A stretch of DNA of 64,000 nt from Cenococcum geophilum 1.58 (lineage: Eukaryota > Ascomycota > Dothideomycetes > Gloniales > Gloniaceae). Shown here piece by piece: positions 31,347 through 58,818 of this stretch. The notes under the pieces were generated by a model. That model made no database searches. It was not told the origin of the DNA and was given only the letters and a program-made list of their open reading frames with translations. Each line of letters opens with the position of its first letter. Positions within the stretch are counted from its first letter, which is position 1. The stretch lies in assembly GCA_001692895.1 (NCBI GenBank), contig KV748196.1, forward strand, positions 2,232,001 through 2,296,000. Direction: 5' to 3'. A program made the position numbers and the translations under genes.

Positions 31347-32367
31347 TATAAGATAGAGTTAGAACTAGGAATAAGTCTAAGGTTCTTTTTAACCTATAAG
31401 CTTACTTAAGAGGAGTTAAGAGCACTTAAAGAGTTTATTTAGGAGAACTTATAAAAGGGATATATTAGACTATTGCAGTTATTAGTAGGATATCCAGTAC
31501 TGTTCGTACTAAAGAAGAACGGAAAACTTAGGCTATATATTAACTATAGATAGTTAAATAGCATCACTTAAAAGGATAGGTATTCTTTACCCTTAATTAG
31601 TGAAATCTAAGATAGGATAGGTAATATATAAATCTTTATAAAGATAGATCTAAGATAGGTGTACCATTAGATTAGAATTAAGGAAGGCGATAAATAAAAG
31701 GCAGCTTTTAGATTAAAAGAAGGACTATATAAACTATTGGTAATATAGTTTGGATTAATAAATACACCGGCAATGTTTTAAAAACGAATTAATAGTATAT
31801 TAGGAGAATACCTTAATGAGTTTATTATAGTATACCTTAACGACATTATTATCTACTTAATAACTAAGGAAGAATATAGGGAACACGTTAAATGGGTCTT
31901 AAAGAGACTATAAGAAGAATAAATACTAGTAGTAATTAAAAAATGTAAGTTCTTTATTAAAAAACAGATTTCGTTAGATTTATTATTAAACTAGGTTATA
32001 TTAGTATAGACCTAAAGAAAATTAAAGCTATAATGAGTTAGTAAGAACTAGAGAATATAACGCAGTTAAGGTTATTTCTAGGGTTTTGTAACTACTATAG
32101 GAGGTTTATAGTATAATAGTTAAAGAATATTAAACCTTTTACTAGGCTTATAAAGAAAGAGGAACTATAGGTATAGGGAGATAAGTAAAAAAAGTTATTT
32201 AAGGAACTTAAGGAGTTATTTACCTAGAAGCCAATCCTTAAAATCTACTAACTAGAACTAGACACGGTTATAGAAATAGATATATTAGACTTTATATTAG
32301 GAGTATGTTTACTATAGAAGTATAAGAATATATAGCATTTAGTGGCATACTATAGTTGGAAAATAAC
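31347..32367 (+). pseudogene. Pol of element B, part 2: RT and start of RNase H
   Basis: Continues B in frame after E. RT has [20 protein letters not shown] at about 31479-31543, then IFIKIDLRQVYHQIRIKEGD near 31631, and the catalytic box VYLNDIIIY at 31829 with the first Asp turned to Asn. A frame change near 31965 is likely due to an indel. RNase H opens with AYYSWKIT, and the frame is cut at 32367 by element F inside it. The next residues, LLELNYNIYNKELLGI, are found at 41266. The joined reading matches the family sequence closely. Non-functional. Confidence 0.9.
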
Positions 32368-32582
32368 TATAAGGGGATCTTGTAGACAGGGGGCTATAAG
32401 GACACAATTAGAATAGGATAGATTAGTAAGAGAGACAAATCCTTAAGGAGGTAAGGCCTCTAGGATCGTGGAGACTATATACTACGGGCACGTGCCTCTG
32501 GCACGTGACCGGCGACTATCCGAGGGGCGTCCGGGGGTTGTCTTAAGGGCAACCCGAGGTGTCCGCAATAATATCCCTTACA
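32368..32582 (-). repeat. 3' LTR of element F
   Basis: Starts tataagggga (from tgtaagggga) and ends atatcccttaca; the reverse-strand polypurine tract (ttgccccccccc on +) begins at 32583. It holds the word ggcacgtg twice, at 32487-32506, with a CACGTG palindrome in each. The pair is at 41046-41260. Confidence 0.93.
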
Positions 32583-33618
32583 TTGCCCCCCCCCTTCTTG
32601 CGGTCGGCCCCCGATCGCCATTACCTTGCGGTAGGGAGATTATAAGGGCTCGTCCCGGAAGAGGTTTGGAGAGATATTGGTATACCGCTATATATTATCT
32701 ATTTATCTAACCCCTACTTTAAACTCCTAAAAAACCTCAATAAGGAAAAAACATAACTAGAGAAAAGACGCGAGGATTGCTAGGAGACCTATTGGAAGCC
32801 TACCGGAAGCATGCTAGTGACTACTTGGGCTAATATAGGGATTTTTATATAACTCTGCTTTTAAGCCTTTATGCCGGTCTATAATTAATTACGAGTATTA
32901 TAGGCAATTTAGTATTCTAGTATAGTTCCGTAGAACCTTTAGTATGGGATTTAACGTACAGAGCCTTGGCTTGCCGTTGTCTTTAACTGCTAAGATATAG
33001 TCTATAATCCTTTCTTATAATCCTTTTCTTATAATCCCCTATGTTACTAACGCATTGCTCCCGCATTTGCCCTTAGGCTATTAGATACAGTTGAGGTATT
33101 AATTAGTTAGTTAAAGAGACTTATCTCTTAATATTTAGTGCATATAGTTTTAAATCTAGTAGTCCTATACTATATATTTGGCGTAGCTCTACTGCCTAGT
33201 AAACAGGGACATTTTGTAATAGTAATTGTAGCTATTATACGATTATTAAGAACGTCTATAACGTTGTTCTTTAATACTATAGTATTGTTTTAGGTTTAAT
33301 TTAACCTATATATGTCTTTAATTTAACGTCTTAATTACCTTCCCCCGGCCGCGTAGTCAGTTTTTATAAGGAAGTAATAGTTAAATAACTTATACGCGTG
33401 TTTCCTTCCTTTTAAATAGCGCTATTATAACGGAGTTATATTGGCAAGGTTGCGGCTATTTACTAGAAGGGTATTAGACGGTGAAGTATAAAGATACTTT
33501 ACTTATCGAGCTTAATCCTTTTCCTTAACACCTTACTTCCCATTATTAACCTTCGTCTAATTTAGACGTATCTTTAATATATCATTAAGATTTTCTTCTT
33601 TTTCATTATTAATTTAAT
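32583..33618 (+). other. Presumed 5' flank of the antisense gene in F (3' non-coding of F)
   Basis: About 1 kb with no protein match seen. For element F it is 3' non-coding sequence, and for the + strand gene it is upstream DNA. The last 25 bases before the ATG are pyrimidine- and AT-rich (tcttctttttcatt), as is common before fungal start codons. No defined promoter element can be claimed. Confidence 0.4.
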
Positions 33619-34950
33619 ATGCCTCTTCGTTCTCCTACTAACTACTCTTTTAAGTAAATTCCACAGCGTATCCTGGCCTTGCCTTTACACATAGAACCTT
33701 AACCCCCACTAACTCGTAACTAGTGCTAGTCCTACCTAAATGATTTTGCCTGCACGTCTTTAAAAGACCAGAAATCTAATAATAGGATTTTAGAGGCTTA
33801 TAATAAGACGCACTACGTCAGATCTAATACCTTTAGTCCTTATAATTAATGCATGCGTACTAAGAGCGGCAGTTGCGTTAAGGTGAGCTTTTCTATCCTT
33901 AATAGATTTCCATTACTGACTTTAATAGCCTAGGCCTAAGTGGCGACGTTCCTTTAATGTCCTTAACTACTATATCGCCCGGGCTCTTTCCCATTTAAGC
34001 GCTAATGCTAAATATCTGGGTCGCATTTAAGACTATGCTACAGCCATCTACACCGCCTATAATTCTTAGCAAGCTAGCCAGCAACGCCTAATGCGAGAGT
34101 AAGGTTGGTATACTAAGGATAGGGTACAGGATAGGGGTAATAAGAAGAAGGTTGCCGTCTACTATAGGAAGAAGTTCGCGTATGCGCGTTAAGTTTTAAA
34201 AGAGCATAACATAATACGGTATTAGGTAGGTTACCCTTTGGGTACCTAGCGAATAGGTAACTAATAGTTGCCGTAGCAAGATCTCGGTAGTTCTAGACTA
34301 TGCCAGCTAGCTAACGTCTCTGTTTATTCTAGGCTTAAGCGTGTCTTTATTAACTATAAGCTTACTCCCTAGAAGCTTTATTAGTATTGGTTTAGACCTA
34401 ATATTAGTGTTAAGCGTTTAAGAGTCTTTGCTTTAGCTACACCTTATCGTCCTACCCCTATTTTTATGCCTACCCATACCCCTACCAAGGGTTCTAGATC
34501 TTATTCTCGTTAGCCATCCCTTAGAGGGCCGATAAATACTAATCCTACTCCTAAGGATAAGGTATAGTGGCTTTTTAGATTAGGCATTTATGGTTTAGAC
34601 TTTTGGGATTCGTTTTTATATATAGTAGCAATCGAGGACCTCGATTAGGTGCTTAGAAAGGCCTTATAAGGCTTTTAGAAAGGGCTTAGGAGCCCTAAAA
34701 ACAGTATTCCTAGTATAAATTAATTAATAGGTATACAATTTTAGCAAAATGCCCTATTAATTCTATACTATATATGTGAAAAGGCTAAGGACCAGTCCTG
34801 CCTTAGGCTATAGCCCTAATCCTTATAGTTTCCGGAGCTTGTCCGTTCCATATCTAATTTAACCTATTTACTCTTTTCGCGAGCTTTCTTTATAGGTCGC
34901 AATAACACCATAGTATTAGAGCGCTTTCTATAATTTGCAGATTATGGACC
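33619..34950 (+). pseudogene. Antisense two-exon gene carried by element F, function unknown
   Basis: A + strand gene running against the gag-pol of F. Exon 1 (33619-33882, 88 codons) starts MPLRSPTNYSFK. It has Cys36, Cys45, Cys78 and Cys86, with Tyr39 and Tyr75 in C-x2-C spacing, where TGC/TGT to TAC/TAT change could have removed two more Cys. This suggests a small zinc-binding module. A 46-bp intron follows. Exon 2 (from 33929) stays in one frame for about 340 codons: YYIARALSHLSANAKYLG near 33968, RVQDRGNKKKVAVYYRKK near 34124, then a Pro-Thr-rich hinge, and LRLGIYGLDFW-like and AFFIGRNNTIVLERF stretches. All stops are TAA/TAG. The end overlaps the chromodomain end of F pol. I do not recognise the family. 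Confidence 0.7.
33883..33928 (+). other. Spliceosomal intron in the antisense gene of F
   Basis: Donor AAG|GTGAGC, branch-site word CTGAC nine to ten bases before the acceptor, acceptor TAATAG|CC; 46 bp, which fits short fungal introns. Exon 1 ends on a complete codon, and 46 is not a multiple of three. The coding-like frame shifts exactly across it, from frame 33619 to frame 33929. This is good evidence for an intron, though splicing is not shown. Confidence 0.75.
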
Positions 34951-34959
34951 TTAGTCCCA

Positions 34960-37900
34960 GTATTCTTTTAGAATATCTTCGCAATAATTAAGGTAATCCT
35001 CTAGTTCCCATATAGAGTCCTTAGCAGGCTAGCCTAGCCATTTAACTTCAAATTAAAGCTTATTCTTAACAGACTTATAGCATAGTATAGCTTCAACCTT
35101 ATACCGCTCGCCCACCACCTTAAGGTGTTTAATTGGGCCTAGACGGAAGTTCTTTTCCGGTAATAGTCTATGCCATAGCTCTAGTAGGTTTATATAAAAC
35201 ACTAAATATATATAGGCTATAGATAGGGGTAGCTAGAGACAATAGGCTAGCTTACCAATTCATTCCTTAACTTAGAAGGGACCTAGGTATCTTATATTAA
35301 GCTTCTTTAATAGTCAACGGGTCTTAATATTCGTTAAACGTAATAGAACCTCATTACCTACTCCAAAATGCTTATCTTAGTGCTTGCGGTTATACCAAAG
35401 TCTTTACTACTCTTAGGCATCTTATAGGCTCTGCTTTACATACTTCTATTACTCTTCCCATTTCTAAAGGTATCCTTATACTCTCTAGTAGATGTCCTTA
35501 AACTTCCCGGTAGGATCCTATAACTAATCATACGGCCTTAGCCAGTAATTGTTGGGTATACTATTAAACCCAAATAGTCGGACGCTATAGGCAATCTAGA
35601 TTGGTGCATACTTATACAATATATATTACTTTAAATTATAAGCATACTCCGCATACGGAAGTAGCTCGCACCAGTTATCTTACTAGTAGTTTAAATACAT
35701 CTATAGGTAAGACTCCAGTTCCTAGTTCTGGCGTTCCGTTTGCCCATCCATCTATAGTTAAAAGCCGTACTATAACGGTGGTCTATCTTTAAATAGAAGT
35801 ATAGATCCGACCAGTATTAACTTATAAAGACGCTGCCCCTATTAGTAATAATAGAGTACGGCTAATCTACTTTAAGAAAGCATTTCTCCTTAATTAGGTT
35901 GGCGAGCTCTTATACGTTAATCGTCTTATTAATAGAAAGGTATTAGACGTACTTTAAAAACCTATTAATAAGTACAAGGACCGAATTATATATTCGTCCT
36001 TAGCCATCTTTAGATAGTGGGAGATCTATAATAAAGTCTATAGCGTAATATCGCTATAGCTTACTAGTGGGGGGAACTAATTTAAGTAGACCCTATAGCT
36101 TGTGCCTACGGATCTTATATACTTAACACTTCTTATAATAGCTAATATACTCCTTTACTTCCTAATTAAGCCTTAGCCAATAGTATTTACGTTAAAGTAA
36201 TTCCACTATCTTTGCTTAACTATAGTGGCCGCCTAAAGGATTATCGTAATTCTTTATAAGAATCTTCTATTATAGATTTACTTCTTATAGCACCCAAACC
36301 TTGCCACCTCTATGTAGTAGGCCCATTAGGTCTAGTTCCCAATAGTAGTGCCTAGTAGCTTCCTTTCCGTTACGTTTCCGGTCTACTTCCGCATTAAGGA
36401 TAGTATAGGAAGCGTCCCTCCGTTATACCTTATGGATAAGATCTATTAACCTTTTGGGTAGTTCCTAGGTAAAAGCTATTTCGTCCTATACTACTCTAAG
36501 TATAAGACTAGATGGTACTATGGATCTTATAACTCTTCAATACGCGTATATTAGGAAGGCCGCTACAAGGTTAAAGTCCTTTAGTTATTATAGGGCTCCA
36601 AGTTCTGATTGCTCTATAGCTTTGCTATTAGTTTAAGGGGATAGCTTAGCAATTAGGGATAGTGTATTATTAGGTTCTAAGAATATATTAAGGACGTCCT
36701 ATCTAGGTATATTCGGACCCTTATCGGCAACGGACCGGGTACCAACCAAAACGTTAGTGGAAACTAATAGGGCTTGCACCGCCTAAGACTTAGTGTATAG
36801 AGCTGTAGGTGCTTAAGTATCCCACACCTAAAGCTTGTTCTGTAATATAGGGAGTAAGATATCTATTATCTATTTTCCTTCTCCCGTTTTAAAGCCTTTA
36901 GTATAGTCTAGCCGTTATAACAGTCTATTAGTAGGGTTATTTTCCCCTAGCTTATATTTAATCTTAAAATTAAACTATGTAAGCTCCTCTACCTATCTAG
37001 CTTGTTAAGGTATAAGCTCCTTCGTAGTTATAAAGTAGCGTAGATTGTAGTAATCTGAGAGTACACGAGTGGTATGGCTCGCGTGCTTAAGGTAGTATCG
37101 CCACTATTTAAAGCAGTTAACTATAGCCAGCAGTTCCTTATCGTGGGTATAATACCTAACTTTAGGTCCCTAGAATTTTCTGCTATAAAATGCTACTAGT
37201 CTTTAATAGAGCTAGGTAGCGTCCAAATGCCTATTGGGTTGTAGTAGGATACCAACAAGGGCAAAATTTAATGCATTAGTAATTATTATTAATGGCTAAT
37301 CTGGGTTGAAATGCCGCAGCACTAGAGCTTCTATAAACTTTACGCAAAGTTCCTAAAAGGCCTTTTAAACCTTTTTGGGCCATAACCATAGCTTATACCA
37401 TTTAGTTAGTCCCTTTTTAGTTTTCTTCCTTACTACCTTTAAGCTTTTTGCTCCTTAGGTTAGGTCTTAGGAAGCTTCCGTAATATAGTTAGATAGGTAT
37501 TAGGCGACGTCTAAGTAGTTATAGATAAAGCGCCTATAGAAATTGGCAAAGCCTAAAAATACTTAAATATCCTAGTAGCTCTCTAGCTTCGGCCACTCCT
37601 AGATTATCTATACTCGTACTAGGTTTATAACTATACTTATAGGCGTTATAATGTAACCTAGGAACTTAACCTGCTTAGTATTAAAGATATACTTTAACGC
37701 CTTAGCGTAGAGGCCCTAATTATCTAAACGTTCCAGCACTTTGCGGACGTATTACTTGTGTTAATCTTTATCTTCTAAGTAGATTAAGATGTTATCTAAA
37801 TAGACGACGCATATATAGTTAACTAGTCCCCCTAAGGCTCTATAAATGTATAATTAGAATATTATAGGCGCATTAGCTAGCCCGAAAGGCATCACCAGAT

Positions 37901-39180
37901 ACTTAAAGTGGCCGTATTAGGTCTTAAAAGCGGTCTTCTACTTATCCCCTTCTTTAATACGGAGCCTATAATAGGCGTCTTATAGATCTAACTTTATAAA
38001 GATCTTCGCCCTAGATAGTTAATCTAGCATTTTACTAACTAGTAGTAGTAGGTAACGGTTCTTAATTATAATCTTATTAAGACCGCGATAGTTTATGTAT
38101 AGCCTTATAGTTCTATCTAGTTTTAAAACAAAGAGAATCGGCGCGCCTAATGGCGACTTACTAGGCTAGATCCATCCCTTTTCTAGTAAGCTATTGAGGT
38201 ACTCCTATAGGATCTTAAGCTCTTTACGCGAGAGGTTATAGATAGGAAGGTTCGGCGGTTATTTACCTTCTTTTAGATTAATTATATAATCGTACTCCGA
38301 GTTTTATAGTAGGACTTTAGCTCTCCTGCCCGAAAATACCCTTAGTAAGTCCCTTAGGCCTGCTAAAATATTTAACAAATTAGGGTCGCGTTTGTCCTCC
38401 GCGTTATTATTAGGTAGGTTCTAAAGCTCCCTCAGAATACTTACGGGCAGCGTCGTGCGCTATAGTAGTTACTTATACATAGTTGCCACCGTACGTTATA
38501 CCGTTTTATGCGGTAGCTAGTAAAGGGTAAGGAAATCCTTGACGCAGCGCTTAAGATGCCGTAGTATACTCTCCGCATATTGCTTAAGCCAGAGTAACTT
38601 ATAACGGTTAAAGTATCTCGTAAGATCCTTAAGATCGCCGCCTCCCTATAATGTCTCCGCGACCTATCCGGCAGTTCCCTATAGGGTCTTCATTATAGAG
38701 GGGTTATCACCTATACTAGGCTCTATACCCATCTTGCTATTAAATAGGGGTTAGATCTGATACTTCTTTAGGTGTAAAGTGTATACTATTTCGCCTAGGG
38801 CTACATTCTCTAAAATGTCCTTTAGGCTTATTAGTAATATACGCCCTTTTAAATCTTTATTATTCTATTATTTAAAGGCTCTAGTTTTAAAGCGTATCTT
38901 AGGATCTGCTTCCGCTAGCTAAGGGTATCCAAGGATAAGGTTATAACCTACGAAGTCAGCCGCCTAGAAGGGTTGTAGGCCAACTACCTTAGTACGGTTA
39001 TGTATGTCGGCTACTAACACTATAAGCTTATAGGCACTATATAGTTTAATCCGATGTTTATCTAAGAAGCCTGCGATAAGTTTCTGCCATCTTTATAATG
39101 GGGTAAGTTTATACTCTTTTACTAAATTATATTATATAAGATTAATTTTAGCGCCGCTGTTATATAGTGCTTAGAACTAA
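34960..39180 (-). pseudogene. Pol of element F: protease, RT, RNase H, integrase, chromodomain
   Basis: Read right to left. Protease near 39167-39138 reads NSGAKINLI (D-S-G now N-S-G), followed by DFVGYNLILGYPWL near 38950. RT has MPFGLANAPIIF near 37892 and VVYLDNILIYLEDKD at 37812-37770. RNase H is at about 37400-36900. Integrase is at about 36250-35200 with ITNRGSVFIS near 35855 and, in a shifted frame near 35735, MDGQTERQN, the catalytic Glu region. The chromodomain at about 35130-34970 reads KVEAILCYKSVKNKL, FEVKWLG and SIWELEDYLNYCE. RIP stops and at least one indel make it non-functional. Its 3' end overlaps the antisense gene. Confidence 0.9.
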
Positions 39181-39249
39181 CATACCTTACCTATAGGGAG
39201 TATTATTTCTAGCTTAACAGCAATATAGAGAGTCTCTTCTTCCGTATCT

Positions 39250-40930
39250 TGCCCTAGTTATAGCTAGGAGAGATCTATAACTAGGGCTTTTCTTTTTTTA
39301 GATTATTAGTGCGATTATCGCCCTACTTATTTTTCCAATAAAATCTACCTTTAGAGTTTTCTCTTAACTTCTTAGAGTNTTNCNNTAAAGGTGCNNNANN
39401 GGTNTNNGGTTNGCCCTANNAGTCTTTCCNNTTATTTAAGGTTNCTAACTTTAACCCTTNTAAAGTTCTCTTTAAGAACGGCTTCTTTAAAGGTTAGGTC
39501 TACCCTATATTACTACTAAAGTGCCCACGCTTCTAATAACCCCCAGGCTTTCTACTAGAAGAGGTTTAGTTCTTTACCGCATCTTTAGCATTTAGAACTA
39601 CTCGTTTAAAATCCGCATATATAGTAATCCGCGATAAGGCTCCCACGCGCTTTATTTTGTTACGAATTACTAGCTTAATTCTAGCCTAGATAAACCCAAT
39701 CTTCTCCTTTTTATAGATGCTACCGTCCTTATTTTTAAAGGGTTTTAGATCTATCTACTAAGCATAAGTTTCTATAAAGTTTATAAACTGGCGGAAGTTA
39801 TAGCGGTCTAGCTGTATCCGATTCCAGAATAGCTCTATATTATTATATTATATAATATACGGATCTTAAGTCCATTTCTTTAGGAAGGTTTACAGCTATA
39901 GCTATATAGTAATTTGCTCTTTATTAAGCTGATTAAGTGCGATCTGGTTTAGCAATCGGTCTTTAATCTTGCTAATAATCTAGCGTATACGCTCTTTGGT
40001 ATTATCTCGTATTATTAGCATCTTAAAGAAGTTATCTACCTTATAAACCCAATCGTCTAACTACTGGGCGTTGGGTCTATGGCGGAGTTCTAGGCTACCA
40101 GAGGCCTTAGCCAGTTAGTCTATATCCTTTTTTTATTTATAGCGTAGATAACTCTCTAAGTCTTCTATACCTACTTAGGTAGGTATTAGGTAGCTCCTAA
40201 AAAGCCCTTAGCCTTAACTAGGTTGTAAAAGAATTTGCCTAGCTTAGATTAGACCCTACTAGATCTAAATTTACCCTTAAAGGGTTCTAATATATTTATT
40301 AGTAGCTTCCTCCCATATAGCTTCTAAGAGCGTTACAATAGCTTCCTAATATCCGTCTTAGAGGAGATTGGTATAGGGCTCTTAACCTTCTAAACTTAGG
40401 CCTAGGGAGGCTCCTGCTATAGAGGTAGTGTTAGTACTAGTAGTTAGTGTAGGCTTCCCAACAAGGCTCGGGTCTTAAGTTAGTAATTAGCTTAGATTAC
40501 CTAAAGGGATAGGCCCGCTTAGCTTATAAGCAGTTTATACACCACCACTATACTAATTATAGGCCGGTAGTCTTCCGGGAGGATTCCGGTTAGTTCCCTA
40601 GTTAGACGCGTTAGTATATTCCTCTAGCATTTCTGGCTTAGGGGAAGATCTTAGAGTTGCCTTTGGCGCTTAATCTTCTAATTAGCTTAGGTGGGGCTAG
40701 AGAGATTCCGGTTGCTTTCTGGCAGCGTTATAACCGTTATAAAGGGTGTCTGCGTTTTCCTTAGCGGTAACCGTAGGTGTGCGAGAGTCTTTAAGCTCCT
40801 AGAGCATCTAGGTATTAGGGCTCGTTTAGCCGTCTTACCTAGAGGGTTATATTATCGCAATCTCTCGCTATTAGAGGGACCTTCCTACCTTTGCGCGACG
40901 GCTTTCCATAAAGTATCTGTAGAGTTTCCA
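39250..40930 (-). pseudogene. Gag of element F, degraded, with an ambiguous-base cluster
   Basis: Located between the 5' LTR and the protease of F. Legible stretches, read right to left, include SLKTLAHLRLPLRKTQ near 40790, LTRELTGILPEDYRP near 40610 and LGKFFYNLVKAKGFLG near 40240. The knuckle region near 39300-39460 contains a run of N characters and cannot be read. The short + strand open frame at 40691-40945 is a shadow of this gag. Start not resolved. Confidence 0.6.
39379..39460. other. Cluster of ambiguous bases (N)
   Basis: About twenty N characters are scattered singly or in twos and threes through 82 bases rather than as one gap. That pattern fits a consensus across conflicting reads from several near-identical copies, not a sizing gap. 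It falls near the expected gag knuckle of F. Smaller cases lie at 7634-7639 and 17903. Confidence 0.8.
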
Positions 40931-41045
40931 TTTAGGTTATTATAAGATTTTAAGGGAGAATAGTAGTTATAAACAAAAGATATAAATAAACAATCTAGTC
41001 CTTAAAGCCAACTACCCTTCCAAAAAAGAGTAGAAAGGATTTAAA

Positions 41046-41260
41046 TGTAAGGGGATCTTATAGACAGGGGGCTATAAGGACACGATTAGAACAGGATAGA
41101 TTAGTAAGAGAGACGAATCCTTAAGGAGGTAAGGCCTCTAGAATTGTAGAGACTATATACTACGGGTACGTGCCTCCGGCACGTAACCGGCGACTATTTG
41201 AGGGGCGTCTAGGGGTTGTCCTAAGGGCAACCTAAGGTGTCCGCAATAATATCCCTTATA
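41046..41260 (-). repeat. 5' LTR of element F
   Basis: Starts tgtaagggga and ends atcccttata (from cttaca). It is followed by the duplication ataac and the resumed RNase H frame of B. The ggcacgtg words seen in the partner LTR are partly mutated here. Confidence 0.93.
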
Positions 41261-41265
41261 ATAAC

Positions 41266-43437: not shown

Positions 43438-43858
43438 TGTAACGGAACCTTGTAGTAAGTACTATAGTAGGTTCTGTCAATGGGCTAGGTATATAGGTAT
43501 GCAGATAAGTCAATAACGTAATAATAACTGGCGGAGTGGTTGCCTAATAGATTAACTCTAATTATATTCTAAGAATTACTATAAAAAAGGAACTATCTAG
43601 GTAGGGACTAAGGGTCCTTAAATACATAACCATACTTCTAAGAAAGTCGTTACTCTGTCTGCTCTGCCTACTCTATTTACTTTATTATAGATCTTATAGA
43701 TTATATAGATTATATAGATTATATTATATAACTCTACTTACTATTCCTTATTATATAGTTTTACGGGCTCTATTCTAAACCGTACTTATATTAACTAACT
43801 AGCTTCTTCTAACTCCTCTCTAAGTAGTTATAACATTATACTTAAAGCGTCTATAACA
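43438..43858 (-). repeat. 3' LTR of element C
   Basis: On the + strand it starts tgtaacggaacc and ends gtctataaca, with the reverse-strand purine tract (ctatctccctcc) next to it at 43859. The 43640-43735 block contains tandem agattatat units and is not shared with B or D. Confidence 0.93.
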
Positions 43859-44619
43859 CTATCTCCCTCCTTTTTATCTTCGTCCTCAAAGATTCCTAGC
43901 ATCTTTAGGTTATTTACTAGAGGTATAATATCCGTCTAATTAATTTAGTTAATATTATTACTTATTATACCTAAAGTATCTTTTTCTTTGTCTATAGCTT
44001 ATTAGTCTCATACCATTACTACAATATTATCTCTTAGTGAAATTATACTATTTCCTTATTCTCGTTATACGAAAGAGGAATTAGTTTACGTTATACTAGC
44101 GAGTCCCTTATCTTAGTAACCCTCTTTATATTTAGAGTGCACTAAAGCGAATATTTAATTATTTTGCGATATTCGCTCCGTTTCTAACGCTAAGTATACA
44201 TATCCTATTACTCTTAATAGTCTCTAAGTTCCCTAAGTAATTTATTATAGGGTCTTATATTTAATCTACTGCTACAAAGCTTAATAATAAACTGTCCGTT
44301 ACTTTGGCGGAACTTTATTATTTATGTAACGCTAAGAAGGAGGCTGCTAATGCTTAGCAACGGGCCCTTAACTCTTATTTAGCTGCGTCTACTTAGCTAA
44401 TTTATCTTAAAAAAGTTTATAAAAAGGTTTATTCTAAGGAGTGGAAATTTATAAAATAAGGTTTATAGGAACTTAGTAATAAAAGAATAGATTCTCCTCT
44501 AATAGTAATGGAAATAACTCTAAGTAGTTTGGCAGTCGCTCCTCTTAGGTCCCCTTTAGGTGGCTCGTTCTTTAGCGATTCTTCTTTGTTTATACTGCCT
44601 GACCTTTTCTCTTCTAATA

Positions 44620-47600
44620 CTCCTGTACCTTTCCTATAGCGTTCTTTAGGTTCTTTAGTGGTTCCTAGGTAGTCTCGTTATGGCCTATCTACTTTACTTT
44701 ATACTATGTTTTATTATTAACGTCCTTATAACTAACGATTTTTAAAACTTGCTATTTATCCTCCTCTTGCCCTCTATACATGTCTGCCTTATATACTAAT
44801 GGTTTAATATCTCTATATGCTAGTTCTAGCATTGCGATATGTTATATAGGGTAGATCTTTATCTTAACTAGTAGGTTTAACTTAAATGTAACTGGTGAAA
44901 TCCTTTACGTAATTTTAAAAGGTCCTAGTTTAACGTAGTCTAACTTCTTACTTAGTCGTTAACTTTTAAAATTTTTATATAGTAGCTATACTTTATCCCC
45001 CTCCTTAAGATCTGGTCCCTTAGATCTCTTAGCGTTATAGTACTTTTTTATTCTTTGCTATACTCCCTTAGCTATTTCTATAAGGTCTATATAAAGATTT
45101 ATTAAATCCTTTATCTTTTACTTAGCTCTACTACTTATCTTTTTTACTTAATATGGCGATAATAAGGTCCTTAGCTTATATCCGTAATTCGCCTTAAATA
45201 GTAATATACCTATTCCTTTCTATAGTGTTATATTATATATAAACTATATAACTAGTAATAACGATACCTAATTATTCTATATATAATTAATATAATACCT
45301 TAGATACTATTCTAGTGTCTAATTTAATCTTTCCGTTTAACCGTCTGTCTGTAGATAATATGCGGTAGAAGTTACTGCTTAAACTTTTTACTCTACTAAA
45401 AATACTTTCTAAAATACTGTTACGAATCTTAAATCTCTATCTAATATAATCTTACTTAGTGCTCTATATCTTACGAATACTTCCTTAATATAGATTCTAG
45501 CGACATCTTCCACTAATATTTCTTTTATATATGCTATAAAGTATCCCCACTTTATAAGCTTGTTTACTATTACTAAGATTACGTTATAATCTTGTCTAGT
45601 AATAGGATTTCTTAACTTTAGCAACTTAATAATAAAGTCCTATAATATAACCTCCTATAGTCTCTCTAGTATTTTAATAGGTTATAGCCCTTTATATAGC
45701 TTATGCCTTATTAGTTTATTCCTTTAGCAATCTAGATATTCTTTAGTAATTTTCCGTGCTATACCCTAAATTCCGTTAATAATATACTCCTCCTAGAGTC
45801 TTAACACTAAGCCTATAGCTCCGTTGTGTCCTTAAGTTAGTCCCTTATAAAATGACTTAATAAACTCTTTTGCGATAGATCTTGGCACATACATTACTTT
45901 TTAGTTTTTATACTGCTTTAAGTTTAGATCCTCTACCTATATATCTTAGATCTTTTATATCTAATTACTCTCTAGTGATTTATAGATCTGTTCTTTTCGT
46001 ATTGCTATAATTTTTAAATAATTATACCTAATTAATCCGTTTATGTCTTTTCGTAGTAAAGCCCCTAATGGCTTCTTATCGTTTTATAGTTTAGCCTTTC
46101 TACTTAGAGCATCTGCTCGTGCATTTTTAGTACCCTTAGTATGCTAAATTTTAAAATAATATTTTGCAAGCATTTCTGCCTATCTAACCTATCTGCGATT
46201 AAGTTCTTTTATTGTTAGGAACCCCGTTAGGTTCTTATAATCCATTTTAACTATAAATGGTTTCTTTATACCTTATAAGAATGCTCTCTATTTCTTTAAT
46301 ACTGTAACTATACCTAATAACTCCTTATTATAGATGTTATAGTTTAACTCTAGTGGTATTATCTTCCGACTATAGTATGCCACTAGGTGCCATCCGTCTT
46401 TATATTTCTATAGGAAGTACGCTCCTAGTATATAGTCTAATACATCCGTTTCTACAACCGTCTCTAACTTTAGTTAATAGATTTTAAGAACTGGCCCCTA
46501 GGTAAATAACTGCTTAACTTCCTTAAATAGTCTCCTTTATTCCTCTCTCTATACCTATAATTCTTCTTTCCTTATTAATCTCGTAAACGGCTTAATATTC
46601 TTTAACTATTAAGCTATAAACCTTCTATAGTAATTATAAACCCCTAAAAATAATTTTAACTGCGTAACGTTCTCTAGTTCTTGCTAATTCACTATAGCCT
46701 TAATCTTCTTTAGATCTATGCTAAATTGGCCTAGTTTAATAATAAATTTAATAAAATTGGTCTTCTTAGTAAAGAATTTATATTTCTTAATTGCTACTAG
46801 CATCTGTTCTTTTTATAGTCTCTTTAAGACCTATTTAACGTGTTCTCTATATTCTTCCTTGTTTATTAAGTAGATAATAATGTTATTAAGGTATACTATA
46901 ACAAATTCATCTAAGTGTTCTCTTAATATATTATTAATACACTTTTAGAACGTTGCTAGTGCGTTTATAAGCCTAAATTGTATAACTAATAGTTTGTATA
47001 GTCCTTTCTTTAACCTAAAAGCTGCCTTTTATTCGTTGCCTTCCTTAATCCTAATCTGATAGTACGCCTATTTTAGATCTATCTTTGTAAAGATTTGCGC
47101 ATTACCTATCCTATCTTAGATCTCGCTAATTAAGGGTAAAGGATACCTATCCTTTCTTATAATGCTGTTTAACTATCTATAGCTAATGCATAGTCTAAGT
47201 TTTCTATTCTTCTTTGGTATGAATAGTACTAGATAACCCGCTAATGACTGCAATAGTCTAATGTATCCCTTTTAAAGATTTTCCTAAATAAACTCTTTTA
47301 ACGCTCTACCTTCTTCTTTAATAAGCTTATAGATTGGAAAAAACTTTAGACTTATTCCTGGTTCTAATTCTAATAGCTTTTTACTTTCTAGTGACTATAG
47401 CTTTTTGCCATATTTGTGGTATCTCTTTAGTATATAGCTTAATCCTTAATTGGTCTCTTTATATATCGCTCTAACTTAGTACCATACTAACTTAATTTGT
47501 TATTATATCTTGCGGCGTTATATATTTTTAATATCGATCTAACCTATAACCTAATTAATCTTTAGATTATATTTCTGTAACTAAGGTATTTCTAATACTG

Positions 47601-47920
47601 CCTTATTATTCCCTAATGGTAATATATCGAAAGACATCTTAATTTATCTCCCTTTAATGGTTATTTAAATAGGTCCTATTTTAAGATTAATAATACCTTC
47701 TCTATAGGCTATCGGATCTCCTAAAATCGTAACTAGCAGATAAAGGTGCTCCTTTTATCTATATAGTAGCCCTATCCTTTTAACTGCTGCTAGTGAGATG
47801 TGGTTTCTTATTGCTCTACTATCTACTAATGCTTTAAACTGCTAATCTTACCATTTAACTTATAAATTTAGGTGTTGTTTTTAAATTCCTTTAAGGGTTT
47901 AAGGCTCTACTACTAGCTCC
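44620..47920 (-). pseudogene. Pol of element C: protease, RT, RNase H, integrase, chromodomain
   Basis: Read right to left. The protease lies near 47860-47600. RT has LLVIQFRLINALATF near 46985 and the catalytic box VYLNNIIIY at 46902-46872, both Asp lost. RNase H is at about 46600-46100. Integrase includes a long open piece at 45624-45409, with NVILVIVNKLIKWGYFIAY and KIILDRDLRFVTVF, where the first Asp is Asn and the second is intact. The chromodomain at about 44760-44625 reads QVLKIVSYKDVNNK, YKVK*IGHNETT and EPLKNLKNA. The 45409-45624 open frame is therefore genuine integrase rather than a separate gene. Confidence 0.9.
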
Positions 47921-47924
47921 CTCT

Positions 47925-49890
47925 GGTTCTATGGGCCTCTACTTTTCCTAACTATTAGCTGCTAGATCCTTATATACTTGGCTTACTCTTTAGCTAATGC
48001 TTTATTCGCTTTTTATCCTTAATATGCTATAGATATGTGTTCTCTAGGTATTCCTACTACTGTTATCCGTCTAAGCATTTTTCCGTAAGGAATCTTCCTA
48101 GTTAAAGTGTTAAGTCTCCTAACTCCTAAACTTCTACTAGATGCTAGCCGTATATATACTTAGCATTCCTATACTATCGCTTATCTAGCGCCTAATATAT
48201 CCTTATAGGGTATTTCCGGTTCTTTTCTTTTGGATTTTTATGCATTTTATATATATCGTCTACGCATGCAATCTATAATAGCGTATAGTGTGCTAGGTGC
48301 TTTAGGTTAACTTTTAACTCATCTTTATCTTTAAGTTTAAACCTCTGTTATGTTGATCTAAACGTTACGACTTTATTTATAGGTACTAAGATATATCTCT
48401 CGCTTTTCTAGTCCTCTAATCGTTTCTTTAGATCCTTTAATGTTATAATTAAGGCTCCCTTAATATGATTTATTGCTTTTTCTGTAATTAGGTAGTTTTA
48501 GATAACTCTCTTGTCCAACTATATGTAGAAATCTTCCTACTTATTATTGTATTGCTGCTTATACCACTTTTAGTATATCTGCTGAAGTGTATACGGCTTA
48601 TTTGTAAGGAAGTATCTTCTTATTACTGCGTTATAACAGCCCTTTATATGTCGTTCTTTAAACCTAGTTAGAATCCCTAGATCCTCTTTATTTTCTAGTT
48701 CAGTAAGCCACTTAGCTTTTGGCGTGCCTGTTTTCGGCCTATTAGTAACTTTTTATACCGGCGCTCTATCTTATATATAACCTAGTATACTAAATCTCTT
48801 ATTTAGTTTCTGTTCTTGCTATATAAGGATTCTTGCTCTAAACTTATCTATGGTTTCTTATTACTTACGTCTTGTAATTAGATCCTTAAAGTCTTCTTAC
48901 TTCTTAATTGCTATATTAACTTTTTAATCTTTAGGCTAAACACTTCGTTTACCTAGTAAGTCTTTTAGGTCTATATATCTGTCTCTTAATCTAACTGCTG
49001 TTTATATTACAGATTCTCTGATCTGTAAAGAAGTCTCTTGCTTCTTACTTATAGGTGTCCTTATTTATATTCTAAATTCTTAGTCCCTTAGATTCTTTAA
49101 TCCTAAGCTTACTTCTTTCTTAAGCTTAGCTCTAGCCTTAGTCTAACTAGGCTTTACTAGTGTCCTTATCTTGTCTTAAGAGTCCTAGATCTTATTCATC
49201 TTGTCTTAAAAGTTTTATACCTTTAGGAAACTTCGTCCTAAGCTTATTTGTATATTACTAAACTAAGCTATTACTCTACTCTATTGGTTTTCGTCTATTG
49301 TAGGTCCTTAAGCATGCCTTATCTCATCTTAAGAATCTTAGTTGTCTCTTATCTTATCTTAAGAATCTTAAGCCTTTGGCCTTTTGCCTTTATTAAGTAG
49401 TAAGCTAGTACTAGCAGTTATCTACTTGCTTAATCATCTTTAGATATTACTCCTTCCGTCTTATAAAGTAATAGATGCCGTATCTAATAGTATTATAATA
49501 CCCGTTACTGAACCTTGCTTTATAGCGGTCTTAGTCTTTACTTTTATTGCGTTATTAAGGTTTAGATACCTCCAGTTAGTTCCTTTACTATCCTCATCGC
49601 TGTTAATTAATAAGTACTCTAACTCTATTGTTATTGTTACTAATCTTTATTTATATATTGCTGTAATATCTTAATCTAGCTTATAAAGTTAATTTTATTC
49701 TTTGTCTAACTCTCTAATTCCTTTAAGTCCTTTTAATTTTGGCTCCTATAGCCAATAGCTTGCGCTATACTTAGCGTCCTTATGAACTTAGTATATATTG
49801 TTATAATAAAACGCAAAACTTCTAATTAAATATTCTTTTATTCCTTATAGTACACTATTATCCCTCTATATATGTGTGTTATATACTATT
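47925..49890 (-). pseudogene. B-family linker module in element C
   Basis: Same position and content as in B at 23141-24920: a globular part at about 48000-48600 and the repeat zone with aagattctta-type words (seen here as taagaatctta) at about 49060-49380. Reading is broken by TAA/TAG. Function unknown; presence in three copies shows it is part of the element and not a chance insertion. Confidence 0.55.
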
Positions 49891-49899
49891 AGTTTAGTT

Positions 49900-50054
49900 C
49901 CCTTTACCGCGTAGTAACTCTAACCACTTCTATAGTCTTTAGCGAAATAACCCTATTTTCCGCAATTTATATAAGCTCTATCTCTAAACCATTATTTCTA
50001 TTATGGAGTTTGCTTAAACGTCTTCTACTGCTAAGATCCTTAGTTTAGCCTATG
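49900..50054 (-). pseudogene. Gag of element C, 3' piece with the CCHC knuckle
   Basis: The knuckle at about 49985-49915 reads RAYINCGK*GYFAKDYRSG, with His and two Cys changed to Tyr. It is the C-terminal end of a gag that is interrupted at 50055-50059 (ctccc) by element D and continues at 57861. Confidence 0.8.
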
Positions 50055-50059
50055 CTCCC

Positions 50060-50481
50060 TATAACGGAACCTTATAGCAAGAACTACGGTGGGTCCTATT
50101 AATGGGCTAGGTGTGTAGGTATTGCAAGTAAGTTAACAACGTAATAATAACTGGTAGAGTGGTTGCCCAATAGATTAACTCTAATTATATTCTAAGAATC
50201 ACTACAAGGAAGGAACTATCTAGGTAGGGACTAAGGGTCCTTAAATACATAATCGTACTCCTATAAAATCCTTCTTATACGTAATATACGTGTTATATAT
50301 AAGGTATGTAAGTTCCTCTTATTCCTCTCGTTTAATACATAGCACGTTATGTGACCTTAGTTACTATTCCTCATTATATAGTTCTAGCGGTTCCATCCTA
50401 GACCGTGCCTATATTAACTAACTAGCTTCTTTTAACTCCTCTCCTAGTAGTTATAATATTGTACTTAAAGCATCCGTAACA
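50060..50481 (-). repeat. 3' LTR of element D
   Basis: On the + strand starts tataacggaacc and ends catccgtaaca; the reverse purine tract (ccatctccctcctc) follows at 50482. The middle block matches B rather than C. Confidence 0.93.
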
Positions 50482-51219
50482 CCATCTCCCTCCTCTTTAT
50501 CTTCGTCCTTAAAGATACCTAGCATCTCCAAGTCGTTTACTAGAGGTGTAATATCCGTCTAATTAATTTGGTTAATATTGTTACTTATTATACCTAAAGC
50601 ATCCTCTTCTTTATACGCGCAACGTTATGCCCGCACTATTACTACTATATTATTGCTTAGTGAAATTATACTATCTCCGTATTCTTATTGTGCGAAAAAG
50701 GGGTTAGTTTATGTTACGTTGGCGAGTCCTTTATTTTAGCAACCCTCTTTTTATTTAGAGTGCACTAAAGTAAATATCCGGTTATCCTGCGATATTTGTT
50801 TTACTTCTAACGCTAAGTATACGCGTCCTATAACTCTTAATAGTCTCTAAGTTCCCTAAGTAATTTGTTATAGGGTCTCATGTTTAATTTACTGCTATAA
50901 AGCTTAATAGTAACCTAGCGTAGGCCCTTATAGAGCTTAAGCGTTCTTAGAATGCGGAATAGAAGGCCCTAGATACTTACATTACGGCGTCTACCCATCT
51001 ACTTTGTCTTAAGAAAGTTCGTAAGAAGGTCCGTTTTAAGGAGTAGAAACTTATAGAATAAGGTCTATAGGAACTTAGTAATAAGAAAACTAACTCTCCT
51101 CTACTAGTAAAGGAAACAACTCTAAATAGTTCGGCAGTTGCTCTTCCTAGGTCCCCCTTAGGTGACTTATTCTTTAGTAATTCTTCCCTATTTATATTAC
51201 CTAACCTATTTTCTTCTAA

Positions 51220-54200
51220 TACTTCTATACCTTTCCTATAGCGTTCTTTAAATTTTCTAGTAGCTCCTAGGTAGTCTCATTATAGCCTATCCACTTTACT
51301 TCGTACTATATTTCATTATCTATATCCTTATAATTAATAATCTTTAAAACTTACTATTTGTCTTCCTCTTATCCTCTATATATGTCTGCCTTATAGACTA
51401 ATAGCTTAATATTCCTATATACTGGCTCTAGCATCGCGATATGCTGTATAGGGTAGATTTTTATTCTGGCTGGTAGGTTCAATTTAAACGTAACTAATAA
51501 AATTCTTTGCGTAATTTTAAAAAGTCCTAATCTAACGTGGTCCAACTTCTTGCTTAGTCGTTAACTCTTAAAATTTTTATATAGTAGCCATACTTTATCT
51601 CCCTCCTTAAGATCTGGTCCCTTAGATCTCTTAGCATTATAGTACTTCTTTATTCTTTGCTGTACCACCTTAGCTATTTCTATAAGGTTTTTATAAAGAA
51701 TTATTAAAGTCTCCATTCTTTCTTTAGCTATGCTACTCGTCTTCTTTACTTAGCGTAGTAATAACAATATTCTTAGTTCGTATCCGTAATTCGCCTTAAA
51801 TAGTAATATACCCATTCCTTCCTATAGTGTGGCATTGTATATAAACTGTATAACTGGTAATAACAATACCTAATTATTCTGTGCATAATTAATATAATGC
51901 CTTAGATACTGCTCTAGTGTCTAATTTAATCTTTCCGTTTAACCGTCTGTCTGTAGATAATATGCGGTAGAAGTTGCTGCTTAAACTCCTTATTCCGCTA
52001 AAAATACTTCCTAAAATGCTGCTATAAATCTTAGATCTCTATCTAATATAATTTTACTTAGTGCTCTATATCTTGCAAACACTTCCTTAACATAGATTCT
52101 AGCAACATCTTCCGCTAAGATTTCTTCTATATATACTATAAAGTATCCCTACTTTATAAGCTTGTCTACTATTACTAAGATTACGTTATAATCTTATCCA
52201 GTAATAGGATCTCTTAACTTTAATAACTTAATAATAAAGTCCTATAATATAACCTCCTATGGTCTTTCTAGTATTTTAATAGGTTATAGCCCTCCATACA
52301 GCTTATGCCTCGTTAGTTTATTTCTTTAGCAATCTAGACATTCCTTAGTAATTTTCCGTACTAAACCCCAGATTCCATTAATAATGTACTCCTCTTAGAG
52401 TCTTAACACTAAGCCTATGGCTCCGTTGTGTCCTTAAGTCATTCCCTTATAAAAGTCTTCTATAAAATGCTCTGCTATACTTTTTAGGATATACTTAGCT
52501 TCTCGATTCTTATATATATCCATCTATAAATCTTCTAGCTATGCCTTTAGAATTTTTTATACCTAAAAGCTTTCTAGTGTCTTATAGACTCTTTCTAACT
52601 TTTCCTCTTAAGTTGCTGCGATTTTTAGATAATTGTATCTAATTAACCTATCTGTGTCTTTTCGCAATAAAGCCCCTAATAGCTTCTCGTTATTTTATAG
52701 TTTAGCCTTTTTACTTAGAGCGTCTGCTCGTGTATTGTCTATACCCTTAGTATACTAAATCTTGAAATAGTAGTCTATAAGTATTTCTGCCCATCTAACC
52801 TATCTTTAGTTAAGTTCCTTTGTTGTTAGGAATCCTATTAGGTTCTTATAATCCGTCTTAACTATAAATAGTTTTTCTGTTCTTTGTAAGAATGCCCTTT
52901 ATTCCTTTAGTACTGCAACTATACTTAATAACTCCTTGTTATAGATGTCATAGTTCAGTTCTAGTAGTGTTATCTTTCGACTATAGTATGCCACTAGGTG
53001 CCATCTATCTTTATATTTCTATAGAAAGTACGCCCCTAGTGCAAAGTCTAATATATCTATCTTAACCACTGTCTCTAACTTTGGTTAGTAGATTTTAAGG
53101 ATTAGTTTCTAGGTAAATAACTTCTTAAGTTTTTTAAATAATTCTTTCTGTTCCTTTCTCTATACCTACGGTTTCTCTTTCTTCGTTAATTAAGTAAACG
53201 GCTTAATATTCTTTAACCACTGCGCTATAAACCTCCTATAGTAATTACAAAACCCTAAAAATGATCTTAACTGCGTAACATTCTCTAGTTCTTGCTAATT
53301 CACTATAGCTTTAACTTTCTTTAGGTCCATGCTTAGTTTGCCTAGCTTAATAATAAATTTAACAAAATCGGTCTTCCTTATAAAGAACTCGTATTTCTTA
53401 ATTGCTACTAGTATCTGTTCCTCTTATAGTCTCTTTAAAACCCATTTAACGTGTTCTCCGTGCTCTTCCTCGCTTATTAAGTAGATAATAATATCGTTAA
53501 GGTATACCATAACAAACTCATTAAGGTGTTCTCCTAACATATTGTTAATTCGCTTCTAGAATATTACTAGTGCGTTTATAAGCCCAAATTGCATAACTAA
53601 TAGCTTATATAGTCCTTCCTTTAACCTAAAGGCTGCCTTCTATTCGTCGCCTTCCTTAATCCTAATCTAATAGTATGCCCATCTCAGATCTATCTTTATA
53701 AAGATTTGCGCATTACCTATCCTATCTTAAATTTCGCTAATTAAGGGTAAAGGATACCTATCCTTTCTTATAATGCTGTTTAACTGTCTATAGTTAATGC
53801 ATAACCTAAGTTTTCCGTTTTTCTTTAGTACGAACAATACTAGATAACCCACTAATAATTGTAATGGTCTGATGTATCCCTTTTATAAGTTCTCCTAGAT
53901 AAACTCTTTTAATGCTCTACCTTCTTCTTTAGTAAGCTTATAGGTTAGAAAGAACTATAGACTCATTTCTAGTTCTAACTCTATCTCGTAGTCCTATACT
54001 ATATACTCTAACAGCTTTTCACTTTCTAGTAACTATAACTTTTTGCTATATTTATAGTATCTCTTTAGTATATAACTTAATCCTTAATTAGTCTCCTTAT
54101 ATGTTGCTCCAACTTAGTACCATACCAACTTAGTTTGTTATCGCATCTTGCGTCATTAAGTATCTCTAATATTAACCTAACCTATAACCTAATTAATCTT

Positions 54201-54500
54201 TAGATTGTATTCCTATAACTAAGGTATTCCTAGTATCGCCTTATTATTCCCTAATAGTAATATATTAAAAGACATCTCAATTTATCTCCCTTTAATAGTT
54301 AACTAAATAGGTCCTATTTTAAGATTAATAATGCCTCCTCCGTAGGCTATCGGATCTCCTTAAATTATAACTAATAGATATAGGTACTCCTTCTCTCTAT
54401 ATGGTAGTCCTATCCTTTTAATTACTACTAGTGATATGTGGTTCCTTATTACTCCACTATCTACCAATGCTTTAAACTGCTAATCTTGCCATTTAACTTA
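51220..54500 (-). pseudogene. Pol of element D: protease, RT, RNase H, integrase, chromodomain
   Basis: Read right to left. Protease near 54475 has ALVDSGVIRNHI with an intact D-S-G, then VVIKRIGLPY. RT is at about 53990-53300, with the catalytic box VYLNDIIIYLIS at 53510-53480 (first Asp lost) and, further on, KKVKAIVN*QELENVTQL. RNase H is at about 53250-52750, integrase at about 52450-51500 and the chromodomain at about 51360-51225. It is the best-preserved of the three B-family copies by eye, with fewer stops around RT, but still clearly non-functional. Confidence 0.9.
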
Positions 54501-54504
54501 TAAA

Positions 54505-56330: not shown

Positions 56331-56334
56331 TAGT

Positions 56335-57405: not shown

Positions 57406-57433
57406 TATTAAAACCGTAACTAGGTAGTAATTG

Positions 57434-57855
57434 TGTAACGGAACCTTGTAGCAAGAACTACGGTGGGTCCTGTTAATGGGCTAAGTGTATAGGTATTGCA
57501 AGTAAGTTAACAACGTAATAATAACTAGTGGAGTAGTTGCCTAACAGATTAACTCTAATTGTATTCTAAGAATTACTATAAAGAAGGAACTATCTAGGTA
57601 GGGACTAAGGGTCCTTAAATACACAATTGTACTCCTATAAAATCCTTCTTGTACGTAATATATATGTTATATATAAGGTACGTAAGTTCCTCTTATTCCT
57701 CTTGTTTAATACGTAGCACGTTATATAACCTTGGTTACCATTCCTTGTTACATAGTTCTACCAGTTCTATTCTGGACCGTACCTATATTAACCAACTAGC
57801 TTCTTTTAACTCCTCTCCTAGTAGTTATAACATTGTACTTAAAGCGTCCGTAACA
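57434..57855 (-). repeat. 5' LTR of element D
   Basis: On the + strand starts tgtaacggaacc and ends gtccgtaaca; both ends are intact. Followed by the ctccc duplication and the resumed gag of C. Confidence 0.94.
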
Positions 57856-57860
57856 CTCCC

Positions 57861-58795: not shown

Positions 58796-58818
58796 AACCG
58801 TAACTATGGTAGTAATTA

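What the first reader, a model, noticed from the sequence alone, without database searches (positions are those of the whole stretch)
33619..34950. Antisense, intron-bearing gene inside a Gypsy retrotransposon
F carries a + strand gene against its own gag-pol. Frame, stop spectrum and a GTGAGC...CTGAC...TAG intron of 46 bp agree, and the coding frame changes exactly across the intron. An intron on the antisense strand survives reverse transcription of the element RNA, so its presence is expected for a gene expressed from the opposite strand. Cys pairs in exon 1 hint at a zinc-binding or regulatory protein. It could be a captured host gene or an element-encoded accessory protein.
Basis: partly seen in the sequence, partly recalled or inferred. 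Interest (0 to 1): 0.85.

Follow-up and report, generated by a model that had tools for sequence, protein, structure and literature searches.

The report
Spliced antisense gene in fungal retrotransposon
A large family of mutated jumping elements in a fungal genome carries an extra gene on the strand opposite its own gag-pol genes; such antisense genes are known from a few plant and fungal elements, and this one adds a small intron that is conserved from copy to copy.

Summary
Element F is a Ty3/Gypsy chromovirus whose gag-pol lies on the minus strand: LTRs 32368-32582 and 41046-41260, target duplication ATAAC. Between pol (probable stop 34864-34866) and the 3' LTR, the + strand carries a two-exon gene: 33619-33882, intron 33883-33928, 33929-34720, probable stop 34721-34726. 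It converges with pol. RIP has broken every copy examined, so I tested it with changes RIP cannot make. In 45 copies, transversions shared by two or more copies fall 3/2/18 on codon positions 1/2/3 (p=1.3e-5); exon 2 length is a multiple of three in 44 of 45; the shared 7-bp indel sits in the intron; GT starts it in 43 of 45 and TAG ends it in 45 of 45. Fourteen of 14 fetched copies reaching the 3' LTR carry the gene. A natural open frame from another dataset ends where I had placed the stop. Exon 1 was cysteine-rich. It works like the antisense accessory genes of LTR elements, such as brtn of Botrytis Boty; homology to brtn could not be tested. Splicing was not observed and function is unproven.

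The parts
32363..32367 (.). Target-site duplication ATAAC (other copy 41261-41265)
32368..32582 (-). 3' LTR of element F (gag-pol orientation)
   Evidence: 215 bp, 19 transitions and 0 transversions against the other LTR
32583..32600 (-). Purine-rich tract next to the 3' LTR (PPT-like on the minus strand)
   Evidence: read directly
32583..33618 (+). About 1 kb between 3' LTR and the antisense ATG; presumed 5' UTR and promoter of the antisense gene (inferred)
   Evidence: 33300-33618 behaves as non-coding: shared one-base indels, shared transversions 6/5/4 by phase
33619..33882 (+). Exon 1 of the antisense gene, 88 codons, cysteine-rich
33883..33928 (+). Spliceosomal-type intron, 46 bp here, 53 or 56 bp in 35 of 45 copies
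33929..34720 (+). Exon 2 of the antisense gene, 264 codons here (259-265 in 44 of 45 copies)
   Evidence: natural relatives P0002-P0004
34721..34726 (+). Probable stop codon(s) of the antisense gene (inferred)
   Evidence: 34721: stop in 42 of 45; 34724: TAA 26, TGA 9, TTA 10; P0002 ends at the residue before it
34864..34866 (-). Probable stop codon of pol, convergent with the antisense gene
   Evidence: stop in 45 of 45 copies
34864..41045 (-). Internal stretch holding gag-pol: RT, RNase H, integrase zinc domain, SH3_Tf2-1 and chromodomain found; gag not identified
41046..41260 (-). 5' LTR of element F

Best explanation
Shown: a chromodomain-bearing Ty3/Gypsy family with hundreds of copies carries, between pol and the 3' LTR, a second gene on the opposite strand. 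It has two exons and one 46-56 bp intron and would encode about 350 residues. It was under protein-level purifying selection while the family was active, and every copy examined here has since been damaged by RIP. Inferred: it is an element-encoded accessory gene (antisense aORF). It is transcribed from a promoter in the roughly 1 kb between the 3' LTR and its ATG, or from the LTR itself, then spliced by the host and translated separately. The genomic RNA used for reverse transcription is the other strand, so the intron is never recognised there and is inherited by each new copy. Inferred with less confidence: the cysteine-rich first exon is a metal-binding nuclear module, and the protein helps or regulates the element's cycle from a separate mRNA, as proposed for antisense aORFs of plant elements. 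The confidence below is for the gene and its intron, not for this last step.
For: Transversions (which RIP cannot make): 3/2/18 by codon position for columns shared by two or more of 45 copies, and 20/14/37 for all columns, both exons; flanks 6/5/4 and 1/1/2. Exon 1 and exon 2 have different wobble phases, as the intron predicts (exon 1: 3/3/9, p=0.031). Transversion nonsynonymous/synonymous ratio for exon 2, shared changes: 0.21, the lowest of the six frames. The two indels shared within exons are 3 and 15 bp; the 7-bp one is inside the intron; all seven shared in the flanks are 1 or 2 bp. Exon 2 length is a multiple of 3 in 44 of 45. 372 exon 1-intron junctions and 0 spliced junctions genome-wide. 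14 of 14 fetched copies reaching the 3' LTR carry the gene. P0002, a natural 145-residue frame on another contig, aligns at 64% over 129 residues with the + strand reading, has residues at all 7 stop positions of the window copy in that stretch (5 of them Gln), and ends where the stop was inferred. P0003 and P0004 are further relatives. Nine columns of exon 1 are Cys in 5-39 of 45 copies and Tyr in nearly all others, the direction RIP takes.
Against: No copy examined is intact and no transcript was available, so splicing and translation are unobserved. The absence of spliced junctions would also be seen if the intron were never spliced. Six of 23 majority-stop columns of exon 2 are stops in all or all but one copy; I explain them by RIP saturation, and P0002-P0004 support that only for the part they cover. 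One minus frame in the exon 2 stretch is more open than the proposed frame (10 majority-stop columns, 1 near-fixed), though its substitution pattern is not that of a coding frame. A minus frame with the same wobble also has a ratio below 1 (0.38 for shared changes in exon 2; exon 1 0.28 against 0.31 for the + frame). Counting single-copy changes weakens the exon 2 ratio to 0.46. Exon 1 has only one transversion column shared by two or more copies, at position 2, and three copies have frame-breaking indels there. No Pfam match and no confident fold (mean pLDDT 49). Promoter and function are inference.
Confidence: 0.83

Rival explanations
1. A recently captured host gene or gene fragment, carried by chance and without function for the element.
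For: It has an intron, like a cellular gene, and no known transposon domain.
Against: Every fetched copy reaching the 3' LTR carries it (14 of 14). Selection acted between copies. The 119 and 133 listed matches have at least 15 stops each, so no cellular parent is among them, though hundreds of weaker candidates were not scored.
Confidence: 0.07
2. The signal belongs to a minus-strand reading frame: a C-terminal extension of pol or another sense ORF, whose wobble phase coincides with that of the + frame in exon 2.
For: That frame shares the wobble positions, and its transversion ratio is also below 1 (0.38).
Against: The pol frame has a stop in 45 of 45 copies at 34864-34866 and shared frame-breaking indels at 34812-34818. 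In the exon 2 stretch 13 of its 30 majority-stop columns are near-fixed. The splice signals, the phase difference between exons and the 7-bp indel fit the + strand gene. P0002-P0004 are proteins that align with the + strand reading.
Confidence: 0.04
3. No functional protein: antisense non-coding transcription that makes double-stranded RNA with the element RNA; the open frame is a relic.
For: Antisense transcripts of fungal transposons are reported as lncRNAs (PMC10648671, abstract start seen in the listings). Convergent genes can give overlapping transcripts.
Against: Codon-position-specific conservation and frame-preserving indels across the family are not expected for a non-coding RNA. Both roles could coexist.
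Confidence: 0.06

Closest known systems
[quoted passage not shown] 2011, paper not held; seen through passages of PMC7264820, PMC8365987, PMC4227169, PMC5987419)
   Same: Fungal Gypsy element whose gag-pol includes a chromodomain (PMC4227169 passage); extra gene antisense to gag-pol.
   Different: Sequence relationship not testable here. No intron is mentioned for brtn in the passages I saw, and the original paper was not available.
Antisense aORF-3R genes of plant LTR elements: Grande gene23, RIRE2, Retand, PvRetro13 (PMC7264820, sections 5 and 7 read and passages; PMC11963269, passages)
   Same: Position between pol and 3' LTR, antisense, present in most copies of a family, unknown function, some nuclear or predicted to bind DNA; Grande gene23 has its own promoter.
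   Different: Different host kingdom; no Pfam match here (TRP28 and SMC are reported for some plant ones); conserved intron and cysteine-rich first exon here.
HTLV-1 HBZ and related retroviral antisense proteins (named in PMC11963269 passages; HTLV antisense promoter in PMC7264820 passages)
   Same: Antisense gene expressed from the 3' side of a retroelement; HBZ is also spliced (recalled).
   Different: No sequence relation claimed; HBZ is a bZIP factor (recalled).

Membership tests
Antisense additional ORF between pol and 3' LTR (aORF-3R) | Lies between pol and 3' LTR | tested here: met
   probable pol stop 34864-34866, gene 33619-34726, 3' LTR 32368-32582
Antisense additional ORF between pol and 3' LTR (aORF-3R) | Encoded on the strand opposite gag-pol | tested here: met
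   pol domains on the minus strand; + strand coding pattern
Antisense additional ORF between pol and 3' LTR (aORF-3R) | Present in all or most copies of the family | tested here: met
   14 of 14 pol-ascertained copies that reach the 3' LTR; in the other 6 of 20 fetched the match breaks off before it
Antisense additional ORF between pol and 3' LTR (aORF-3R) | Own transcription from an antisense promoter | not testable with these tools
   no RNA data held
brtn family of Boty | Protein homology to BRTN | not testable with these tools
   Zhao 2011 not held; the only protein hits, P0002-P0004, bear no source name
Chromovirus (Ty3/Gypsy) for the host element | RT-RNase H-integrase order with C-terminal chromodomain | tested here: met
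   RVT_1, RT_RNaseH, Integrase_H2C2, SH3_Tf2-1, Chromo
Spliceosomal intron | GT-AG ends, branch-like motif, length variation free of frame | tested here: met
   GT 43 of 45, TAG 45 of 45, branch motif 41 of 45, lengths 46/53/56 in 43 of 45
Spliceosomal intron | Removed from a transcript | not testable with these tools
   no RNA data held
Known zinc-finger families (Pfam) | Match to a profile | tested here: not met
   no match up to E=10 for the window copy, exon 1 of three copies, exon 2 of three copies, P0002 and P0003; RIP damage lowers sensitivity

The most novel reading that the evidence does not exclude
The gene is a spliced, fast-changing, cysteine-rich nuclear regulator made from the opposite strand, perhaps one that counters host silencing of the element. 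Its coding on the opposite strand would let it use host splicing without losing its intron during transposition. The gene carries 3-4 times more transversion differences between the same 15 copies than pol does (6.6 against 1.7-1.9 per kb; 4.4 in the stretch upstream), as expected of a gene in conflict with its host, although exchange between subfamilies would explain that too.
Probability: 0.1. Interest if true: 0.8.

Novelty: new variant of a known kind. Interest (0 to 1): 0.52.

Why it matters
Antisense accessory genes of LTR elements are known in a handful of plant families and in Boty, their functions are unknown, and the 2020 review (PMC7264820, conclusion passage seen) asks for a look at antisense and spliced transcripts. 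Here is a family with hundreds of copies in one fungal genome (372 junction matches) in which the intron can be recognised by conservation alone. It also shows a way to test whether a RIP-destroyed gene was coding: count only changes that RIP cannot make.

Tried and rejected
Stop counts as evidence: rejected, because three frames of exon 2 tie and one minus frame is more open across copies. Codon 34724 as proof of an original stop: rejected, because its TGA could be original or could itself come from a RIP change; the stop is placed by several lines together. Translated matches as evidence of coding: rejected, because a query that I cut one base out of frame by mistake still matched 118 places, with about twice the stops in the window copy. 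Pfam, an AlphaFold model of P0002 (mean pLDDT 49, no fold search made) and the first protein search with both exons (none of 3511 candidates) gave nothing. A reading of 34727-34950 as part of the gene: rejected, because frame-breaking indels of 2 and 1 bp are shared there and pol ends there. A second, in-frame intron of about 51 bp near 34226-34276 was considered; no indel in 45 copies suggests it, but it is not excluded. Naming the host: size 177.2 Mb resembles Cenococcum geophilum (178 Mb, PMC5023957 passages), not tested further. From memory only, many ascomycete proteomes hold uncharacterised proteins with cysteine pairs followed by a long helix; I could not test whether they are relatives.

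Full report
What the element is. The window lies in a 177.2-Mb assembly of 162 contigs. No open frame of 100 residues exists in the 64 kb, and TpA/ApT is 1.68, which fits heavy RIP. Element F is bounded by ATAAC at 32363-32367 and 41261-41265 and by two 215-bp LTRs that differ by 19 transitions and no transversion. With stops masked, Pfam finds reverse transcriptase, RNase H, integrase zinc domain, SH3_Tf2-1 and chromodomain on the minus strand. A purine-rich tract abuts the LTR that ends at 32582, so this is the 3' LTR. The element is a Ty3/Gypsy chromovirus read right to left.

What was claimed and what is there. The frame, the GT..TAG intron and the frame change are in the sequence. The stop count of this copy is not evidence: in exon 2 three of six frames have 21-22 stops in 340 codons.

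Copies. A nucleotide search returned 40 scored copies of 500 candidates, a protein search 119 scored matches of 829 candidates, another 133 of 559. Every row has at least 15 stops. To see whether family members lack the gene, I chose copies by their pol segment instead. Fourteen of the 20 reach the 3' LTR and all 14 carry the gene region; in the other six the match breaks off, in five inside pol and in one inside the gene.

Tests that RIP cannot fake. RIP makes only C-to-T and G-to-A changes, so I counted transversions in an alignment of 45 distinct copies: 32 from the gene-based searches (five duplicate loci left out, and one copy, L002/L012, whose match began inside the stretch) and 13 from the pol-based set (one duplicate left out). 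Columns where two or more copies differ by transversion fall 3/2/18 on codon positions 1/2/3 over both exons (p=1.3e-5); counting single-copy differences too, 20/14/37 (p=8.4e-4). Exon 2 alone gives 3/1/18 (p=4.2e-6) and 17/11/28 (p=0.0072). Exon 1 alone gives 0/1/0 and 3/3/9 (p=0.031). The stretch upstream gives 6/5/4 and the stretch downstream 1/1/2. In 15 copies aligned through pol, 5 of 6 shared transversion columns of pol lie in the wobble phase of its RT frame, a positive control on few sites. Of five copies compared one by one with the rest, L019 has most transversions: 0/1/6 and 3/3/12 in the two exons and 2/2/3 upstream.

Which strand. A minus frame shares the wobble positions with the + frame. 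For shared transversions in exon 2 (taken to 34801) the nonsynonymous/synonymous ratio is 0.21 for the + frame, 0.38 for that minus frame and above 1 or undefined for the other four; with single-copy changes the values are 0.46 and 0.97. In exon 1 the two tie (0.31 and 0.28). The + frame is favoured by the splice signals, by the phase difference between the exons, and by near-fixed stops: 6 of 23 majority-stop columns in + against 13 of 30 in that minus frame. Another minus frame is more open (1 of 10), but its wobble positions (+ codon position 1) hold only 3 of the 22 shared transversion columns of exon 2, so I read its openness as a by-product of + strand codons.

Intron. GT begins it in 43 of 45 copies, TAG ends it in 45 of 45, and CTAAC or CTGAC is present in 41 of 45. 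Lengths are 53 (23 copies), 56 (12), 46 (8), 54 (1) and 29 (1). The 7-bp indel shared by 36 copies is inside it. The two indels shared within exons are 3 bp (25 copies) and 15 bp (9 copies); the seven shared in the flanks are 1 or 2 bp. Private indels within exons are 1, 10, 1, 254 and 6 bp. Exon 2 length is a multiple of three in 44 of 45 (the exception has the 254-bp insertion) and exon 1 in 42 of 45. Genome-wide, a degenerate pattern over the exon 1-intron junction has 372 matches with up to 2 mismatches and its reversed control none; a pattern over the spliced junction has none, its control none. The intron is therefore inherited through transposition, as expected if it is on the strand that is not the genomic RNA. 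This does not prove that it is ever spliced.

Ends. The start codon is ATG in 22 and ATA in 23 of 45 copies. Codon 34721 is a stop in 42 of 45; codon 34724 is TAA in 26, TGA in 9 and TTA in 10. RIP can make stops of either kind, so these columns alone do not prove an original stop; they are supported by the shared frame-breaking indels that begin at 34812 and by P0002, which ends here. By the same reasoning pol probably stops at 34864-34866 (stop in 45 of 45). If so, the genes converge with 137 bases between them.

Independent relatives. A profile of ten X-masked exon 2 copies gave one protein with E below 1 among 3754 candidates (P0002, E=2.6e-64, 145 residues, a 729-bp ENA contig). It is a natural open frame. 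It aligns at 64% over 129 residues to the window copy and has residues (5 Gln, 1 Lys, 1 Glu) at the seven stop positions of that stretch. It ends at the residue before the inferred stop; a contig end at that point is possible but would be a coincidence. Its first 16 residues do not align and, by eye, resemble another + frame, so this copy also seems to carry a lesion. Used as a query it found two more relatives, P0003 and P0004. Their organisms are not named.

Protein. Exon 1 has nine columns that are Cys in 5-39 of 45 copies and Tyr in nearly all others (residues 9, 36, 39, 45, 61, 66, 75, 78, 86); exon 2 has two of this kind (columns with at least five Cys). Since RIP turns Cys codons into Tyr codons and not the reverse, exon 1 was cysteine-rich, with pairs spaced C-x2-C at 36/39 and 75/78. 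No Pfam family matches. The model of P0002 is unreliable (pLDDT 49).

Comparison with what is known. [quoted passage not shown] PMC11963269, PMC8365987, PMC4227169, PMC5987419, passages). The element meets the positional features of that class. Whether its protein is related to BRTN could not be tested; the original paper is not held. In my literature searches (listings seen) I found no report of a conserved intron in such a gene, but most subscription papers are not in the library.

Variation. The gene differs between the same 15 copies by 6.6 transversions per kb, against 1.7-1.9 in pol and 4.4 in the stretch upstream. The window copy differs from each of the 14 others by 13-19 transversions in the gene. 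This may mean fast evolution or exchange between subfamilies; I did not separate them.

Verdict. A real, formerly functional, spliced antisense gene of a RIP-inactivated chromovirus; a new variant of a known kind. Existence as a coding gene is well supported, intron use is strongly suggested but not observed, function is unknown, and a separate nuclear accessory role is my best inference.

Noticed in passing
window 33619-34726 versus 34864-38200: The antisense gene carries 3-4 times more transversion differences between copies than pol in the same 15 copies; fast evolution or exchange between subfamilies.
   Followed up: partly
L041 (insertion at window 34375) and L054 (near window 33229): Two of the 14 copies reaching the 3' LTR carry insertions of about 250 and 225 bp in or upstream of the gene.
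   Followed up: no
G000:C27:1297116-1301117: Upstream segment and exon 2 match 2.5 kb apart instead of 0.3 kb: nested insertion or two separate elements.
   Followed up: no
window 43440-59239: Other repeats whose neighbouring copies are mostly 6.4-7.4 kb apart, 61-92% identical without gaps, suggesting further retrotransposons in tandem.
   Followed up: no
window 1-64000: No open reading frame of 100 residues and no Rfam match at gathering score in the whole window.
   Followed up: no
window 34226-34276: A possible in-frame 51-base GT..TAG stretch rich in near-fixed stops inside exon 2; no indels among 45 copies support it as a second intron.
   Followed up: partly
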